8,294 bases of DNA. It comes from Kiloniellales bacterium (GTDB lineage: Bacteria > Pseudomonadota > Alphaproteobacteria > Kiloniellales > JAKSDN01). The notes below the pieces were generated by a model. The model had not been told where the DNA came from, ran no database searches, and was given only the letters and a program-made list of their open reading frames with translations. Position numbers and translations under genes: made by a program. Location of the stretch: contig JAKSDN010000076.1 in the NCBI GenBank assembly GCA_022360075.1, forward strand, positions 1-8,294, read 5' to 3'. This document shows positions 876-6,003 of the stretch, piece by piece; within the stretch, counting starts at the first letter, position 1; the number at the start of each line of letters is the position of its first letter.

Positions 876-1511
876 TCAGCCGAAAGCGTCCAGCGGCAAG
901 CGCTCGCGGAACGAGGCGCTGATCGTCGTCAGGTTGCGGTCGCTGCGCTGCACGGCGAGATCCGAGGTCATGAAGAACAGGCCCTTGGCCGCCGTCGTCA
1001 CCAGAGGCTCGCCGTCGGCCGGGGCTTCGCGCAGGCGCGGCCAGATGTCGAGCGTCGCCCGGCCGGCGCCGTCGGCGTCGACGTCGCCCAACACGCAGTG
1101 CAGACGGGTGCCCGCGCCGCTGCCGATCGAGAAGCGGTCGTTCTCGAGCAGCACGCCCGGCGCGCTCGGCGTCCAGCCGCGCGTGTTGAGCGTCCGGCCG
1201 CTCTGATCGACGCCGTCGACCACCGGCGCCCCGGCCGCGCTGCCGCGCGGCGCGGCGAGCGTGGTGTCGTGCAGCAGGATCGTCCCGACCGGCCCCTCGA
1301 GCGAGCGTAAGCGCGATTCGAGCTGCGCCATCACCGCGCGCTCGCGCCGGCTCCAGGTCATGCGCGCCCCCCAGAACTGCCCCGGCCACTGCTGCACCTG
1401 GACCTGTCCCGTGAATTCCGATGTGACGACTGCGGCCAGGTTGCCGTCGGTGATCGTGATCGTGACGCCGAGCAGGTCCGGCGGCAGCGAGACCGGATAG
1501 ACGATCGTCAT
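876..1511 (-). CDS. Phage distal-tail-like minor tail protein
   Basis: A 211-residue protein starting at an ATG that overlaps the tape-measure stop by one base (TAATG, 1513-1509), a classical coupled junction. It carries the signature of a widespread family found directly after the tape measure. It has a W-rich stretch QQWPGQFWGARMTWSRRERA (residues 41-60), then GTILLHD, then APVVDGVDQSGRTLNTRGW (about 96-114), then LENDRFSIGSGAGTRLHCVLGDVDADGAGRATLDIWPRLR, and AKGLFFMTSD near the C-terminus. The pattern 'GAPxVxGxxQTGxxLxxxGW...L..gD.f.iGsG..lh.V..d..aDgaG.AtL...P.LR' is one I recognise from siphoviral tail genes. The place in the gene order suggests a role like lambda gpM or Dit, joining the tube to the tip. 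The exact structural role is inferred. Confidence 0.75.
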   Translation of the reverse strand: MTIVYPVSLPPDLLGVTITITDGNLAAVVTSEFTGQVQVQQWPGQFWGARMTWSRRERAVMAQLESRLRSLEGPVGTILLHDTTLAAPRGSAAGAPVVDGVDQSGRTLNTRGWTPSAPGVLLENDRFSIGSGAGTRLHCVLGDVDADGAGRATLDIWPRLREAPADGEPLVTTAAKGLFFMTSDLAVQRSDRNLTTISASFRERLPLDAFG

Positions 1512-3889
1512 TACCGGGTCCGCCGTCCAAAGAAGCCCTGATCCAGGTCGTTCTGGCGGCGCACCTCGGACACGGCCACCGCCGTTAGGCGCTGCTCGTT
1601 GCGATCGATCGCGCGCTCGGCTTCCTCTTGCGCGATGTCGCGCATCTCGATGCGCATCGCCCGACCGTCGAAGGACGCGGCGGCGATCTCTTTCGGCGCG
1701 CCGCTGTTGAAGATCTGCACGGAGGGCGCCGCGCCCCCGCCGCCCATCACGCGCTCGGTCACGTCGTTGGGCAGCACGAACCCACGGCGCGGGCTGAACA
1801 GCAGCTCCCGGCCGCGCTCGCCGACCAGGTGGAAGCGGCCCGGCCCGACGTCGCCGCCGCCCGCGCGCGGCGCGCCGAACTCGCCAGGCCCGAAGGACGG
1901 CAGGCCGCTGGAGTTGCCGAACAGCGCGCTGAATGGATCGCTGCCCCCGCCGCCACCACCGCCGCCGCCGAAGCCGCCGCCAAAGATGCTGCCGAGGATC
2001 CCCGAGGAGCTGGTCGCCCCGTCGACGAGCTGCTGCAGCACCGAGATCCCGATCCGGCCGAACTCCTCCCAGGAAACGGCCCCATCCCGGAGTGCCTGGT
2101 TGAGCCCGCGATTGAGCGCGCTCGTGACGTCGTCGACCCCGAAGCGGGTCCGCTCGAGCTCCTGCCGCGCGCGGACCTGCGCCCGGTTGTAAGTCTCTTG
2201 CGAGATCGCCCCGGCGTCGAACAGACGCTTGGCCTCGCGCAGCGCCAGATTGTGGCGCTCCTGCGCCGTGGCCAGCGATTCGGTGAATCGCGTCCCTTCG
2301 TCCTCAAGCGCCTGCTTGGCGCGTAACGCGTCGGCGGCCGCGCGCGCGGCCTTCGCCTCGTCGAACAGCTGCCCGGCCAAGCGCTCGGTCTGCGCCCGGA
2401 TCTCGGGCGGGGCCTCGGGCGAGAGCCGCGCCAACGCCGTGTCGATCGAGGCCTGCCGCGGGTCACTCACCGCCGTGAGCCGCCGCTGCAGCCCCTCGAT
2501 CACCCGATTGTCGCGCTCGAGCAGCCGCGCCAGCTTGTCGCCCTCGCCGCCCTCGAGCCGCTTCTGCAGCCGCTCGATCTCCGCGTTGATCAGCGCGCGC
2601 GTTTCGGCGTAGTTGCGCCCGACGTCGAGGCCGCGCCGCTCGGCCTCGGCCAGGCTGTCGAGGGCGCCGCGCAGCTTGTCGATCTGATCGGAGGAGCGCG
2701 CGGCGGCGATCGAGCGCACCGGCTGCGTGATGCTGTCGACCAAACGCTCGTCGGCTAGGCGCCGTTGTGTGAGGTCGGCTTGGACCAGTGCCTGCTCTTC
2801 CGCGATGCGCTGCTGCGTCGCGCTCCGGCGCAGCTCGGCGAGCGCGCGGTCGGACGCCGACACGACGCCCGGCCCGCCGCGGCCCGCGACGCCGCGCGGC
2901 GCGCCGATCCGCGCCTCCTGCAGATCGCGCAGTTTCTCGATGTCGGTCTTTTCCAGCTCCTCGTTGATCGACCTGATCGCGCCCGACGTGGCGTTGAGGC
3001 CGTCGGCCAGCGTCTCGTTGATGCCGCTGGCGCGCCCGACGTTCTCGAAAAAGAAGCCGAGCTCCTCGCCCAGGGTGTCGATCGCGCCGGACAAGCCCTG
3101 CGCGGCGGCCACGGCCGCGCCGCCGACCTGGCGCTCGAGCACCGCGAAGATCTCCTCTTGCGCCTCCGCGAGCCGCCCGGTCTCCGCGAGCGAGCGGATC
3201 AGCTCCTGCTGCGAGGCCGTGAAGGACACGCCGATCCGCCGCAACCGGGTCAGGCCTTCGGCCGGATCCTCGAGCGCCTTGGCGAGCAGCACGGCCTGGC
3301 TCTGCACCGAGCCGAAGCCGAGCGAGGCCAAGTCCTGCGCACGCTCCAAGGTCTCCTCGAAGGCCTCGCCCGAGATGTTGCGGAAGGTCAGAAGTTGATT
3401 CGCCGAGGCGCGGATGTCGCCCGTGCTGGCGAGGGTCTCTCGACCGATCGCGCGCGCGGTCGCCTCGATTGACGCGGCGGTTTGGCCCGACGCCCGCTCG
3501 GTCGTCTGCAGCAGCGCGACCGTCTGCCGTTGCGCGACGTTGGCCCGCTCGGACGCCCTGACCAGACCCGTGACACTGAACGCCAGACCGGCGATGCCCG
3601 CACCCGCCGCGACGGCTAGCGGGTTGACGTTCTGCAGCGTGCTCGTGAAGGCGGTCAGCCGGCCCGCCACCGGCCCGAGCGGCCCCTGGATCGCCCGGAT
3701 CGAGCCGAGCAGTCCCTGCGAGGCCTGGTTGACGTTGGTCAGCCCGCGGCTCGCTGGCGCCGTCGCCTTCTGGATCTCGCGCATGGCCTTCTGGCCGTCG
3801 CCGCCGACTGAGCGCATGATGCGCTTGAACTTGTCGGCCTCCTCGACCGACAGCCGAACGCCGACCTCGCGACGGACGCGATCAACCAT
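1511..3889 (-). CDS. Tail length tape measure protein, lambda gpH type
   Basis: A 792-residue protein that sets tail length and fills the tube lumen before DNA ejection. I use the ATG at 3889 (MVDRVRREVGVRLSVEEADK); it overlaps the stop of the -1 frame chaperone extension by 8 nt. An upstream in-frame start at 3925 would add 12 residues and is less likely. Domains: an amphipathic N-terminus; a hydrophobic segment at residues 91-110 (LAVAAGAGIAGLAFSVTGLV) that could insert into membrane; a TMP_2-like region at about 115-290, including LASLGFGSVQSQAVLLAKAL; long charged coiled-coil helices at about 305-580; a lambda-type C-terminal domain at about 540-625 (DGAVSWEEFGRIGISVLQQL); a glycine run at 637-649; and the typical motif HLVGERGRELLFSPRRG at 687-703. 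It is close in length to lambda gpH (853). At roughly 0.15 nm per residue the tail would be about 120 nm. Confidence 0.93.
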   Translation of the reverse strand: MVDRVRREVGVRLSVEEADKFKRIMRSVGGDGQKAMREIQKATAPASRGLTNVNQASQGLLGSIRAIQGPLGPVAGRLTAFTSTLQNVNPLAVAAGAGIAGLAFSVTGLVRASERANVAQRQTVALLQTTERASGQTAASIEATARAIGRETLASTGDIRASANQLLTFRNISGEAFEETLERAQDLASLGFGSVQSQAVLLAKALEDPAEGLTRLRRIGVSFTASQQELIRSLAETGRLAEAQEEIFAVLERQVGGAAVAAAQGLSGAIDTLGEELGFFFENVGRASGINETLADGLNATSGAIRSINEELEKTDIEKLRDLQEARIGAPRGVAGRGGPGVVSASDRALAELRRSATQQRIAEEQALVQADLTQRRLADERLVDSITQPVRSIAAARSSDQIDKLRGALDSLAEAERRGLDVGRNYAETRALINAEIERLQKRLEGGEGDKLARLLERDNRVIEGLQRRLTAVSDPRQASIDTALARLSPEAPPEIRAQTERLAGQLFDEAKAARAAADALRAKQALEDEGTRFTESLATAQERHNLALREAKRLFDAGAISQETYNRAQVRARQELERTRFGVDDVTSALNRGLNQALRDGAVSWEEFGRIGISVLQQLVDGATSSSGILGSIFGGGFGGGGGGGGGSDPFSALFGNSSGLPSFGPGEFGAPRAGGGDVGPGRFHLVGERGRELLFSPRRGFVLPNDVTERVMGGGGAAPSVQIFNSGAPKEIAAASFDGRAMRIEMRDIAQEEAERAIDRNEQRLTAVAVSEVRRQNDLDQGFFGRRTR

Positions 3890-4675
3890 TCTGCTCTCGT
3901 CTCCGTTGGAAGCCGGCCAAGGCACCGGCCTCGATCGCGATCAGCATCTCGATCACGCTATCCCGCGCGACCGCCTCGCCCTCGAGGCGCAGCAAACAGC
4001 GTTCCAGGTTGAGCCCGGTGACCCCGACCATCGGCATCGCGAGCCAGCAGCCGTCGTCCCTGGTTACGACGTGCCAGGCGAGCCAGCCTTCAACCGTCTC
4101 CGGCGCGTGGACCTTGAGCGGGCACTCGGCGCAGGCGCGGCCGTTGAGGTCTTCGCAGCTTCGGCAGAACCCGGCGCCGCCGCCGAACCACCAATCGGCC
4201 CGGCGGCAAAGCCTTCCCCCTCGTCGAGGAGCTCCACCTCCCGTATGCCGTAGCGCGCCTCGAAGCTGTCGGCGACGAGCGGCTCTTGCTCCATCAAATG
4301 GGCGACGTTGTCCGGCGTACAGGGCAGCGGCTTCCGGTCATCGTCCGCCGCTTCGCCGTCCTCGCCGTCTGCGCGCTTCTTGGGATAAACGCCTTCCCAA
4401 TCCCGCACGGCGATGACCGCCAGGTGCTTGATCGTCAGCGAATTCATGGCGCCCATCATGGCGTCAATGTCGCCCAAATCCGGCGCGGCCTCGCGCGCGA
4501 CCTGCCCGTCCTCGATCGCCTTGCGCAGCGCGCGCAGATCGCCCTGCGCCTTGGCCCTGGCGACCTGGTGCCGCATCGTCGTGAAAGGCTCGACGAGGAC
4601 GCGCACGCCCTGCGCCAGATCGAGCCACTCGGCTTTGCCCGGCGCATCGCCGAGCCGTGTGATCTGCTTTCTCAT
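3882..4675 (-). CDS. Predicted GT tail assembly chaperone made by -1 frameshift
   Basis: After the chaperone start at 4675 the zero frame runs to a stop at 4064, but from about 4214 onward the coding signal (third-position G/C, sensible composition) moves to the -1 frame, open until TGA at 3884-3882. That frame is bounded upstream by a stop at 4340-4338 and has no ATG, GTG or TTG until 4037, so it cannot easily be translated on its own. If ribosomes slip at 4220-4214, the fusion is 264 residues: 154 from the zero frame plus 110 from the -1 frame. The shifted part includes DWWFGGGAGFCRSCEDLNGR, a CX2CX7CX2C cluster, and then EGWLAWHVVTRDDGCWLAMP, ending AGFQRRREQNG. By analogy with lambda gpGT, the T half would recruit the tape measure protein, whose gene overlaps its end by 8 nt. 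Frameshifting is inferred, not shown. Confidence 0.72.
4064..4675 (-). CDS. Tail assembly chaperone, zero-frame (G-like) product
   Basis: A 203-residue product. Its ATG overlaps the stop of the tail tube gene (ATGA, 4675-4672). Features: a short beta-rich start (MRKQITRLGDAPGKAEWLDL), a helical middle with ARAKAQGDLRALRKAIEDG, and a conserved-looking segment MNSLTIKHLAVIAVRDWEGV (about residues 78-97), typical of the 'aV..WegV' pattern in siphoviral G-type chaperones that precede the tape measure gene. An acidic linker (DGEDGEAADDDR) and EARYGIREVELLDEGEGF follow. From about residue 155 the zero frame becomes a low-complexity Ala/Ser/Arg tail (SARSRSTRRRRLKAGSPGTS), as expected for a non-selected extension past a frameshift site. 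It should bind and protect the tape measure during tube assembly and be absent from virions. Position between tail tube and tape measure is the main support. Confidence 0.82.
   Translation of the reverse strand: MRKQITRLGDAPGKAEWLDLAQGVRVLVEPFTTMRHQVARAKAQGDLRALRKAIEDGQVAREAAPDLGDIDAMMGAMNSLTIKHLAVIAVRDWEGVYPKKRADGEDGEAADDDRKPLPCTPDNVAHLMEQEPLVADSFEARYGIREVELLDEGEGFAAGPIGGSAAAPGSAEAAKTSTAAPAPSARSRSTRRRRLKAGSPGTS
4179..4207 (-). promoter_or_regulatory. Candidate frameshift-stimulating hairpin
   Basis: On the coding strand GCCGCCG (4207-4201) pairs perfectly with CGGCGGC (4185-4179): seven G-C pairs around a 15-nt loop. A spacer of 6 nt (GGCTTT) separates it from the proposed slip site, within the 5-9 nt range usual for stimulatory structures. 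In GC-rich DNA such stems are common by chance, so the location carries most of the weight. Confidence 0.5.
4214..4220 (-). promoter_or_regulatory. Candidate -1 ribosomal frameshift slip site
   Basis: Coding strand reads G-GGG-GAA in zero-frame codons (GAG GGG GAA GGC). A -1 shift lets the P-site glycine tRNA re-pair perfectly on GGG. The A-site glutamate tRNA moves from GAA to GGA with only a U-G wobble at the middle position. It is not a canonical X-XXY-YYZ heptamer, but it is the best site I find in the window where both frames are open (4337-4064), and it lies where the coding signal changes frame. A strong hairpin starts 6 nt downstream. Confidence 0.55.
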
Positions 4676-6003
4676 GGCGTCGCCGGATAGTCTGTGACGT
4701 CGTTCCAGAGCGAGACCGTGAGCGCGCGATCGACGCCGGTCTCCCGCGAGCCTTGTCCGTCGCTGTAGGTGACCTCGACCGGGCCCGGCCCCTCGACCGG
4801 CGCCGAGCCGCTCGGCAGGTCGACCTGGTGCAACAGGAACTCCAGCTCCATCCCGTCCACCCGGTCGACGAAGCCGAGCCGAACGGCGATCGCCTCCTCG
4901 GCCTCGACCCTTTGCTTCACCGTGTTGTTCGAGAAGCGGGCGGTCAGGTTGAGGCCGATCTGCGTTTCGCCTGGATCGAGGCCCGCGATCAGTCCATCGC
5001 GGCGCAGGCCTTCGAAGACGGTCAGGTTGTTGCCGACGGTGAGCTCGGCCGTCGAGAGGTTCGCGACCTCGACCTCGTCGACGTAGAAGTTGCCCTTGAA
5101 GTTGAAGAAACGGTCCAGCGCCAAGGCGTTGGGCGTACCGGCTTGCGTGGCCGGAAAGGTCTGTTCGCTCTGCGCGATCATCTCCAGCGTCGCCTGTGCC
5201 GTGCCGCTACGCTGTCGCGAGATCTGCATCGAGTTGAGCATCGCGCCCGCGCGCACGACGAAGCCGTCCGTCTCGCCCGCAATGTCGGCATGCTCGGTCT
5301 CGATCGCCATGTCGGGTAGCAGGATCGGCACGCCGCCTTGGCGCTTGTCGCTCACGAACAGGTGCTTGTAGAGCCCCCCGCCGTAGAGCGTGACGTTGGA
5401 CAGCACGGCGCTCGCGATGTCGGTGGCGAGCGTGTAGCTGTTGCCCGTCGCATCGGCCGTGTCGTGGTCGATCTCGAGCCGGTGGCCGCTGCGGCTATAG
5501 GTGGCCGCCGCGATATTGGCGTCGACCGAGCCGTTGAGATCGATCACGAGCTGGTCGAGCGTCGCTGCCAGGTCGGCGCCGATCTGGGTCTGATTGCCGA
5601 CCGGCGCGCCGGCGACGAAGGTCCACGCCACGCCGTCGAGCGTGATCGTGTCGGTGTCGGCGGGGTTGCTCGCAAAGCCGATCCAGCCCCGCGCGCCGAG
5701 CGGACCGGTGGTGGTCGGCGCCCCCAGGCCGAGATAGAGCCACCAGGCGAACATGCGCTTGTCGATCGGCACCACGATCTGACCGGCCACGTCGATCGGC
5801 CCGCGCTCCGGCCGCTCCGGGTCCCGGCCGCCGCCGAGCAGCGGCGTGCGCTCCAGCGCCTGGTTCTTCGCGAGGCCGTTGCTGATCGCCCGGATCTCGG
5901 TCCAGTTTCCGCCCGGCTGCGAGCCGTATCCGGCCGCCGCCGACGCGAGCTTCGCGCGCAGCTTGACGTTCGCGCCCAAGGCGCGCCTTGGCTCAACGCC
6001 CAT
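4672..6003 (-). CDS. Phage tail tube (major tail) protein with inserted domain
   Basis: A 443-residue protein that polymerises into the tail tube. The ATG at 6003 has a clear ribosome site (AGGAG, 7 nt upstream) after a 23-nt gap, fitting high expression. The N-terminus (ALGANVKLRAKLASAAAGYG, then GNWTEIRAISNGLAKNQALE) and the block GPIDVAGQIVVPIDKRMFAW (residues 68-87) match the Phage_tube_2-type family as I recall it. Residues about 104-210 form an extra domain with the pattern 'TITLDGVAWTFVAG...NQTQIGADLAATLDQLVIDLN...YSRSGHRLEI...TGNSYTLAT'. The tube fold resumes at LYKHLFVSDKRQ and continues through IETEHADIAGETDGFVVRAG and LTARFSNNTVKQRVE to a C-terminus at DVTDYPATP. Without the insert the length (about 335) is normal for these tubes. 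It precedes the chaperone and tape measure genes, as lambda V does. Confidence 0.9.
   Translation of the reverse strand: MGVEPRRALGANVKLRAKLASAAAGYGSQPGGNWTEIRAISNGLAKNQALERTPLLGGGRDPERPERGPIDVAGQIVVPIDKRMFAWWLYLGLGAPTTTGPLGARGWIGFASNPADTDTITLDGVAWTFVAGAPVGNQTQIGADLAATLDQLVIDLNGSVDANIAAATYSRSGHRLEIDHDTADATGNSYTLATDIASAVLSNVTLYGGGLYKHLFVSDKRQGGVPILLPDMAIETEHADIAGETDGFVVRAGAMLNSMQISRQRSGTAQATLEMIAQSEQTFPATQAGTPNALALDRFFNFKGNFYVDEVEVANLSTAELTVGNNLTVFEGLRRDGLIAGLDPGETQIGLNLTARFSNNTVKQRVEAEEAIAVRLGFVDRVDGMELEFLLHQVDLPSGSAPVEGPGPVEVTYSDGQGSRETGVDRALTVSLWNDVTDYPATP
5374..5694 (-). other. Extra beta-type domain inserted in the tail tube protein
   Basis: This segment encodes residues about 104-210. 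It has the repeating signature I associate with a small domain inserted in many phage structural proteins: DTITLDGVAWTFVAGAPVGN, QIGADLAATLDQLVIDLNGS, then RLEIDHDTADATGNSYTLAT and a closing 'LSNVTLYGGG'. The tube-like sequence on both sides reads as continuous if it is removed. It is probably displayed on the outside of the tube. Boundaries are approximate. Confidence 0.6.

What the first reader, a model, noticed from the sequence alone, without database searches (positions are those of the whole stretch)
3882..4340. Chaperone gene with an apparent programmed -1 frameshift
Seen: the zero frame of the G-like gene degrades into an Ala/Ser/Arg tail, while a -1 frame open from 4337 to 3882 carries protein-like sequence with no usable start before 4037. 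A G-GGG-GAA slip candidate (4220-4214), 6-nt spacer and 7-bp GC hairpin (4207-4179) sit exactly at the change. Known: lambda G/GT and many siphoviruses make both chaperones by -1 slippage. Inference: this phage makes a 203-residue G and a 264-residue GT. The slip site is non-canonical, relying on GGG re-pairing and a GAA-to-GGA wobble.
Basis: partly seen in the sequence, partly recalled or inferred. Interest (0 to 1): 0.75.

Follow-up and report, generated by a model that had tools for sequence, protein, structure and literature searches.

The report
Phage tail chaperone with ribosomal frameshift
A phage tail-building helper gene carries a conserved signal predicted to make some ribosomes slip back one base and produce a second, longer protein; this is a known trick of tailed phages, here seen in a new member with a less usual slip sequence.

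Summary
The G-like gene (4675-4064, minus strand) matches tail assembly chaperones; the -1 frame (4214-3882) matches the frameshifted part of annotated Rhodobacter phage chaperones. Of 149 sequences held, 141 encode this T part (window included; 61 clusters), and all 141 carry a slip heptamer at the window's position: AAAAAAC 98, GGGAAAC 33, AAAAAAA 6, GGGGGAA 4. In most relatives the next 40 nt fold into a hairpin stronger than synonymous-codon shuffles give (49 of 61 with z below -1.5, median -2.83).

GGGGGAA is non-canonical but already in print: the PRFect authors report it for about a thousand annotated (untested) actinophage cases and offer the same G:U explanation; corynephage phi16 has it too.

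Verdict: a new member of a known kind. Modest extras: the heptamer varies while its position stays fixed, and Pfam DUF7697 / phrog_11212 seem to model only the back half of this frameshift-encoded domain. Expression was not tested.

The parts
4064..4675 (-). G: zero-frame tail assembly chaperone, 203 aa; residues 1-154 (4675-4214) are shared with GT, the last 49 codons are the zero-frame tail
   Evidence: phrog_313 tail assembly chaperone E 1.1e-5; profile of relatives' G parts of at least 100 residues, window left out, scores 60.2 bits against -0.6 for the reversed sequence
4214..4220 (-). slip heptamer G-GGG-GAA
   Evidence: in frame, unique in the window; aligned without gaps with the heptamers of 60 other cluster representatives
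4177..4209 (-). candidate stimulatory hairpin: 14-bp stem, 5-nt loop; GC core 4207-4201/4185-4179, 6 nt after the heptamer
   Evidence: -26.3 kcal/mol; z -1.66 against synonymous-codon shuffles; most relatives have a hairpin at this place, in another register
3882..4214 (-). T extension in the -1 frame, 110 aa plus stop, with W-x-F-G-G-G and four conserved Cys
   Evidence: tblastn to Rhodobacter phage GT; R1, W8, G13, C17, C20, C28, C31 invariant in 61 sequences; confident fold, mean pLDDT 91.7
4234..4242 (-). Shine-Dalgarno-like GGGAGGTGG upstream of the slip site, possible extra stimulator
   Evidence: best anti-SD duplex in the 22 nt before the heptamer -11.1 kcal/mol, strongest of 61 representatives, median -4.0; the role is inference
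4672..6003 (-). tail tube gene just upstream
   Evidence: PF18906 Phage_tube_2 E 2.7e-28
1511..3889 (-). tape measure gene just downstream; likely ATG at 3889-3887 lies just before the T stop codon
   Evidence: PF06791 TMP_2 E 5.1e-9 (on the ORF as listed from 3925); ATG read from the sequence; the RcKemmy tape measure also starts before its T stop

Best explanation
The locus is the G/GT tail assembly chaperone gene of an unnamed siphophage-like tail module. Most ribosomes read G in the zero frame and stop at 4066-4064, giving 203 aa. A minority slip back one base at G-GGG-GAA (4220-4214), helped by the hairpin that starts 4-6 nt downstream and perhaps by the SD-like stretch upstream, and finish in the -1 frame, giving a 264-aa GT. 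In the slip, tRNA-Gly re-pairs with GGG and tRNA-Glu with GGA through a middle G:U pair; alternatively the P-site tRNA slips alone. By analogy with lambda, the shared G part coats the tape measure protein and the T domain brings tail tube subunits to it. Shown by comparison: two frames, homology of both parts, fixed slip position, a hairpin at that place in most relatives. Inferred: slippage itself, its rate, the tRNA mechanism, the role of hairpin and SD, and the chaperone function.
For: The T frame matches chaperones annotated as a two-piece join in the four Rhodobacter phage records opened. RcKemmy RISALAEWHFGKGAGYC and window RLCRRADWWFGGGAGFC align without gap directly after GAG-GGA-AAC and GAG-GGG-GAA. 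141 of 141 T-encoding sequences have a slip heptamer at offset 0; among 61 cluster representatives 58 are canonical there and no other offset from -40 to +30 codons has more than 2 canonical ones. The 61 x 47-nt alignment has no gaps. Hairpin: median z -2.83, 49 of 61 below -1.5; 88.7% of cells paired against 85.3% in shuffles and at most 56.7% in slid versions. L010 and L093 leave only 4 and 2 codons before, and 1 codon after, the heptamer for the frame to change. GC codon-position switch. Order tube - G/T - tape measure as in RcKemmy. GGGGGAA is reported in the same gene of other phages.
Against: No expression data. The heptamer is not X-XXY-YYZ. The window's stem is not a family structure (50.6% of cells paired in relatives, as in shuffles), the consensus-like fold reaches only -12.9 kcal/mol in the window, and 48 of 1000 synonymous shuffles fold as well. 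L098, the one GGGGGAA relative found without the heptamer as bait, has a weak hairpin (z -0.11) and no strong SD-like stretch (-3.9). In the pair counts, the number of pairs changed on both sides (6 of 14) is not above slid versions (up to 7), and the RNAalifold covariation term is small (-0.46). The search for homologous proteins found no relative of the T frame and only the window's own protein for G. One published Rhodobacter phage, RcZahn, is said to lack clear frameshift sequences in this gene (PMC8601537, passage).
Confidence: 0.93

Rival explanations
1. T is a separate small gene translated from its own start (first candidate ATG at 4037), by coupling or reinitiation.
For: Two records annotate a second gene there, and Pfam DUF7697 and phrog_11212 begin at T residues 53-67. 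An ATG exists at 4037. 26 of 60 representatives have some ATG/GTG/TTG in the T frame before W8.
Against: The conserved W-x-F-G-G-G and four Cys lie within residues 1-31 of T, upstream of that ATG (residue 60); 34 of 60 representatives incl. the window have no start before W8. Slip heptamer at a fixed place in 141 of 141. The model is confidently folded from residue 1.
Confidence: 0.03
2. The frame change is a sequencing or assembly error, or a disabling mutation.
For: Single-base errors in homopolymers are common (general knowledge); the heptamer holds a run of five G.
Against: The same -1 relation at the same base occurs in 140 other loci from viral contigs, phage records and bacterial genomes, most with a hairpin.
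Confidence: 0.01
3. Transcriptional slippage (RNA polymerase) on the G run rather than ribosomal slippage makes GT.
For: A homopolymer lies at the site, and many relatives have runs of six or seven A.
Against: Five G is short for polymerase slippage (recalled, not tested); GGGAAAC in 33 of 141 has no long homopolymer; the hairpin 6 nt downstream fits ribosomal stimulation.
Confidence: 0.03

Closest known systems
Rhodobacter phage RcKemmy / RcC cluster tail assembly chaperone (genes 15 and 16)
   Same: Gene order, T domain (39% identity in the alignment), -1 shift at the same codon, annotated as a two-piece join.
   Different: Slip heptamer GGGAAAC; window has GGGGGAA. Megablast of the window in the phage collection found no match.
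Phage lambda G/GT -1 frameshift
   Same: G and GT from one start, T in the -1 frame, acting on tape measure and tail subunit (described in PMC5009743, passages).
   Different: No sequence link to lambda was tested here; the lambda heptamer G-GGA-AAG is recalled, from no call.
Actinophage 'fivetwo' GGGGGAA chaperone frameshifts (PRFect)
   Same: Identical heptamer and the same proposed G:U re-pairing (PMC10885494, passages).
   Different: Those are SEA-PHAGES actinophage annotations, by the authors' word not experimentally tested; the window's bacterial-genome relatives are largely Alphaproteobacteria by record title.
Corynephage phi16 gp14/gp14A
   Same: GGGGGAA in frame near the end of gp14, which lies between major tail and tape measure genes, with an SD-like GAGG and a pseudoknot proposed by its authors (PMC5506516, passages).
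   Different: phi16 is not among the 13 records matched by T in tblastn; pseudoknot rather than simple hairpin.
Pfam DUF7697 (PF24752), phrog_11212, DUF1799 (PF08809)
   Same: DUF7697 matches the back half of T in four of four relatives tried (E 2.2e-6 to 1.7e-19), phrog_11212 in three of three (E down to 1.5e-19).
   Different: Neither matched the window's own T; DUF1799 matches in three of four relatives are below its cut-off.

Membership tests
Tail assembly chaperone expressed by -1 frameshift (G/GT type) | lies between tail tube and tape measure genes | tested here: met
   PF18906 upstream, PF06791 downstream; same order in RcKemmy
Tail assembly chaperone expressed by -1 frameshift (G/GT type) | zero-frame product related to known chaperones | tested here: met
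   phrog_313 E 1.1e-5; profile of relatives
Tail assembly chaperone expressed by -1 frameshift (G/GT type) | second part in the -1 frame, without its own start, homologous to known T parts | tested here: met
Tail assembly chaperone expressed by -1 frameshift (G/GT type) | slip site at the junction, conserved in position | tested here: met
   141 of 141 T-encoding sequences; ungapped alignment of 61
Tail assembly chaperone expressed by -1 frameshift (G/GT type) | both products made at a fixed low ratio and needed for tails | not testable with these tools
   needs expression and phage genetics
Canonical two-tRNA slip site X-XXY-YYZ | YYZ in the A site re-pairs with YYY | tested here: not met
   GAA would meet GGA; 58 of 61 cluster representatives are canonical, 3 of 61 incl. 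the window are not
Published GGGGGAA ('fivetwo') slip site | GGGGGAA in the zero-frame register at a chaperone frame change | tested here: met
Downstream hairpin of this chaperone family | about 14-bp stem 6 nt after the heptamer in the family register | tested here: not met
   window has a 14-bp stem at nearly the same place but in another register; whether it stimulates is untested

The most novel reading that the evidence does not exclude
Within one chaperone lineage the frameshift signal evolves by swapping parts while its position is frozen to the base: the heptamer differs between canonical sites and GGGGGAA, which must slip through a middle-position G:U pair, and in this phage the weaker heptamer goes with a re-registered long hairpin and the strongest upstream SD-like stretch of 61 representatives, as if the parts compensate to hold the G:GT ratio. 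The front half of T is a four-cysteine module unmodelled in the libraries tried, because it has no start codon of its own.
Probability: 0.25. Interest if true: 0.45.

Novelty: new member of a known kind. Interest (0 to 1): 0.3.

Why it matters
It shows that a frameshifted phage gene can be called correctly from raw sequence. It supplies an ungapped set of 61 signals in which heptamer, spacer and hairpin vary on a fixed frame, useful for learning how slip sites evolve. It also suggests that DUF7697 and phrog_11212 are truncated views of a frameshift-encoded chaperone domain, so that gene callers miss about half of it. The mechanism itself is long known.

Tried and rejected
No whole genome is held for the window. 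Single-sequence scans of viral contigs with G and with T confirmed no relative; tblastn of G in phages found nothing; protein searches found nothing for T and only the window's own protein for G; megablast of the whole window in phages found nothing. Beyond the 13 phage records, relatives came through T alignments. Of 10 viral stretches matching a GGGGGAA-plus-W-x-F-G pattern, 2 (L120, L121) encode T and 8 do not; those two were fetched with the heptamer as bait, so of the four GGGGGAA sequences only L098 is an unbiased case besides the window. A second pattern was mis-spaced by me and its zero hits mean nothing. The window's stem tested on the relatives gives 50.6% paired cells (shuffles 49.9%), so it is not a family structure. 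PDB by sequence gave one match at E 0.82; PDB by fold gave three at E 5.5 or more; the viral fold library gave 26 with best E 0.23, none significant, 4 of them named tape measure chaperone. One search was given all 149 sequences then held; 8 (L115-L119, L122-L124) did not encode T and were left out of the counts. For loci whose tblastn match starts after residue 1 of T, the heptamer position was extrapolated without gaps. Separate-gene, error and transcriptional-slippage readings were considered and rated low.
Full report
What was claimed and checked. The coordinates are right. The heptamer is unique in the window and in the zero-frame register; the first T-frame start is the ATG at 4037. GC by codon position changes frame across the site. 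The hairpin is longer than stated: 14 bp, 4209-4196 with 4190-4177, -26.3 kcal/mol for the 40 nt.

Identity. G matches phrog_313, tail assembly chaperone (E 1.1e-5). The gene sits between a Phage_tube_2 tail tube gene and a TMP_2 tape measure gene. T had no family match of its own, but tblastn found it in 13 phage records, 11 of them Rhodobacter phages. The four of those I opened (RcKemmy, RcOceanus, RcKai, RcDormio) annotate a two-piece joined chaperone there. In RcKemmy the shift site is GAG-GGA-AAC, in the window GAG-GGG-GAA, and the first 20 residues that follow in the -1 frame align without a gap. A profile of relatives' G parts, built without the window, recognises the window's G (60.2 bits; reversed sequence -0.6).

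Relatives. A T alignment found 80 viral loci (best of 410) and 28 bacterial genome loci, largely Alphaproteobacteria by record title; a second alignment gave 24 further viral loci. Of 149 sequences held, window included, 141 encode T, and 141 of 141 have a slip heptamer at the same base: AAAAAAC 98, GGGAAAC 33, AAAAAAA 6, GGGGGAA 4. In 61 clusters (90% identity over the first 60 T residues) the split is 45, 8, 5, 3. Canonical heptamers at any other offset from -40 to +30 codons occur in at most 2 of 61. GGGGGAA is in the window, in L098 (uncultured Rhodospirillales, found by the T profile) and in L120 and L121 (found by a pattern that holds the heptamer, hence biased). In L093 and L010 the T frame opens only 2 and 4 codons before the heptamer and the zero frame stops 1 codon after it, which pins the shift there.

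Hairpin. The 47-nt signals of 61 representatives align without gaps. The 40 nt after the heptamer fold more stably than synonymous-codon shuffles: mean z -2.51, median -2.83, 49 of 61 below -1.5. A stem with 6-nt spacer, 14 bp and 6-nt loop has 88.7% paired cells against 85.3% in shuffles and at most 56.7% in slid versions, and a covariation score of 0.185 against 0.132 and at most 0.130; but its count of pairs changed on both sides (6 of 14), though above shuffles (2 of 500 reach it), is matched by slid versions (6 and 7). RNAalifold draws a shorter, bulged 9-pair version with a small covariation term (-0.46). Relatedness can inflate such counts, so the support for exact pairs is moderate. 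The window departs: its stem is in another register, a fold like the RNAalifold one reaches only -12.9 kcal/mol, and its own z is -1.66. L098 has hardly a hairpin (z -0.11); L120 has a good one (z -2.94). So the place of the signal is conserved, its exact pairs in this phage are not.

The heptamer. G-GGG-GAA breaks the X-XXY-YYZ rule because the A-site tRNA-Glu would meet GGA. This is not new: the PRFect paper states that its 'fivetwo' motif was GGGGGAA in all of the thousand SEA-PHAGES cases and that with G:U pairing all positions are complementary; it also says that those frameshifts are not experimentally tested (PMC10885494, passages seen; preprint PMC10274946, passages). The corynephage phi16 paper proposes GGGGGAA with an internal SD and a pseudoknot (PMC5506516, passages); the phi16 record has it in frame in gp14, though GGGGGAA as such is no rarer or commoner than chance in the 25 kb looked at (3 found, 4.29 expected). 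A systematic E. coli study covers the 64 X_XXZ_ZZN motifs; its held main text has no GGGGGAA (PMC4066793, passages).

T domain. R1, W8, G13, C17, C20, C28 and C31 are invariant in 61 sequences. AlphaFold2 gives a confident fold from the first residue after the shift (mean pLDDT 91.7), lowest around the cysteines (block means 79 and 73), which may bind a metal (inference). Pfam DUF7697 matches T in four of four relatives tried, starting at residues 55, 55, 58 and 67, and phrog_11212 in three of three, starting at residue 53. The first ATG/GTG/TTG in T is most often at residues 45-60, so these families are probably built on gene calls that begin inside T. In one paper search with these terms none of the 15 papers listed, of 92, holds the word DUF7697.

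Mechanism. Most likely lambda-like: G alone plus a minority of GT; the G part on the tape measure, T to the tail tube, as reviewed for lambda in PMC5009743 (passages). Slippage, ratio and chaperone action are inferred here. Efficiencies of 6 and 7% measured for two other phage chaperone genes (PMC3711429, passages) give an idea of scale only. The Rhodobacter phage paper calls the frameshift usual in these genes but sees no clear evidence for it in RcZahn (PMC8601537, passages).

Verdict. Observation confirmed, interpretation supported, novelty low: a new member of a known kind with a published non-canonical slip site.

Noticed in passing
T parts of L001, L036, L037, L098; window 3885-4214: Pfam DUF7697 (4 of 4 relatives) and phrog_11212 (3 of 3) cover only the back half of a frameshift-encoded T domain; the front half with four cysteines is unmodelled in the libraries tried, probably because it has no start codon.
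   Followed up: partly
L002 and L003 (Synechococcus phage Sc-Yong805-1, Nostoc phage Nsp-JY21): The two cyanophage records have the same T sequence and annotate T as a separate gene although homology starts upstream at an AAAAAAA heptamer. Their T resembles that of Rhodobacter phages, so the stated hosts may deserve a check.
   Followed up: partly
16 of 61 representatives, e.g. L010, L027, L093: In these relatives the zero frame stops one codon after the slip heptamer, so the short G product ends at the shift site; in the other 45 a zero-frame tail of 28-49 codons follows.
   Followed up: no
window 4234-4242 (-): Shine-Dalgarno-like GGGAGGTGG 13 nt before the heptamer (its GGAGG core 16 nt); the duplex score of this upstream stretch is the strongest among 61 representatives.
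   Followed up: partly
window 3889-3882 (-): The likely tape measure start (ATG 3889-3887) lies just before the T stop codon (3884-3882), so the two genes overlap and translation may be coupled; the mechanical ORF list starts it further upstream at a GTG (3925).
   Followed up: no
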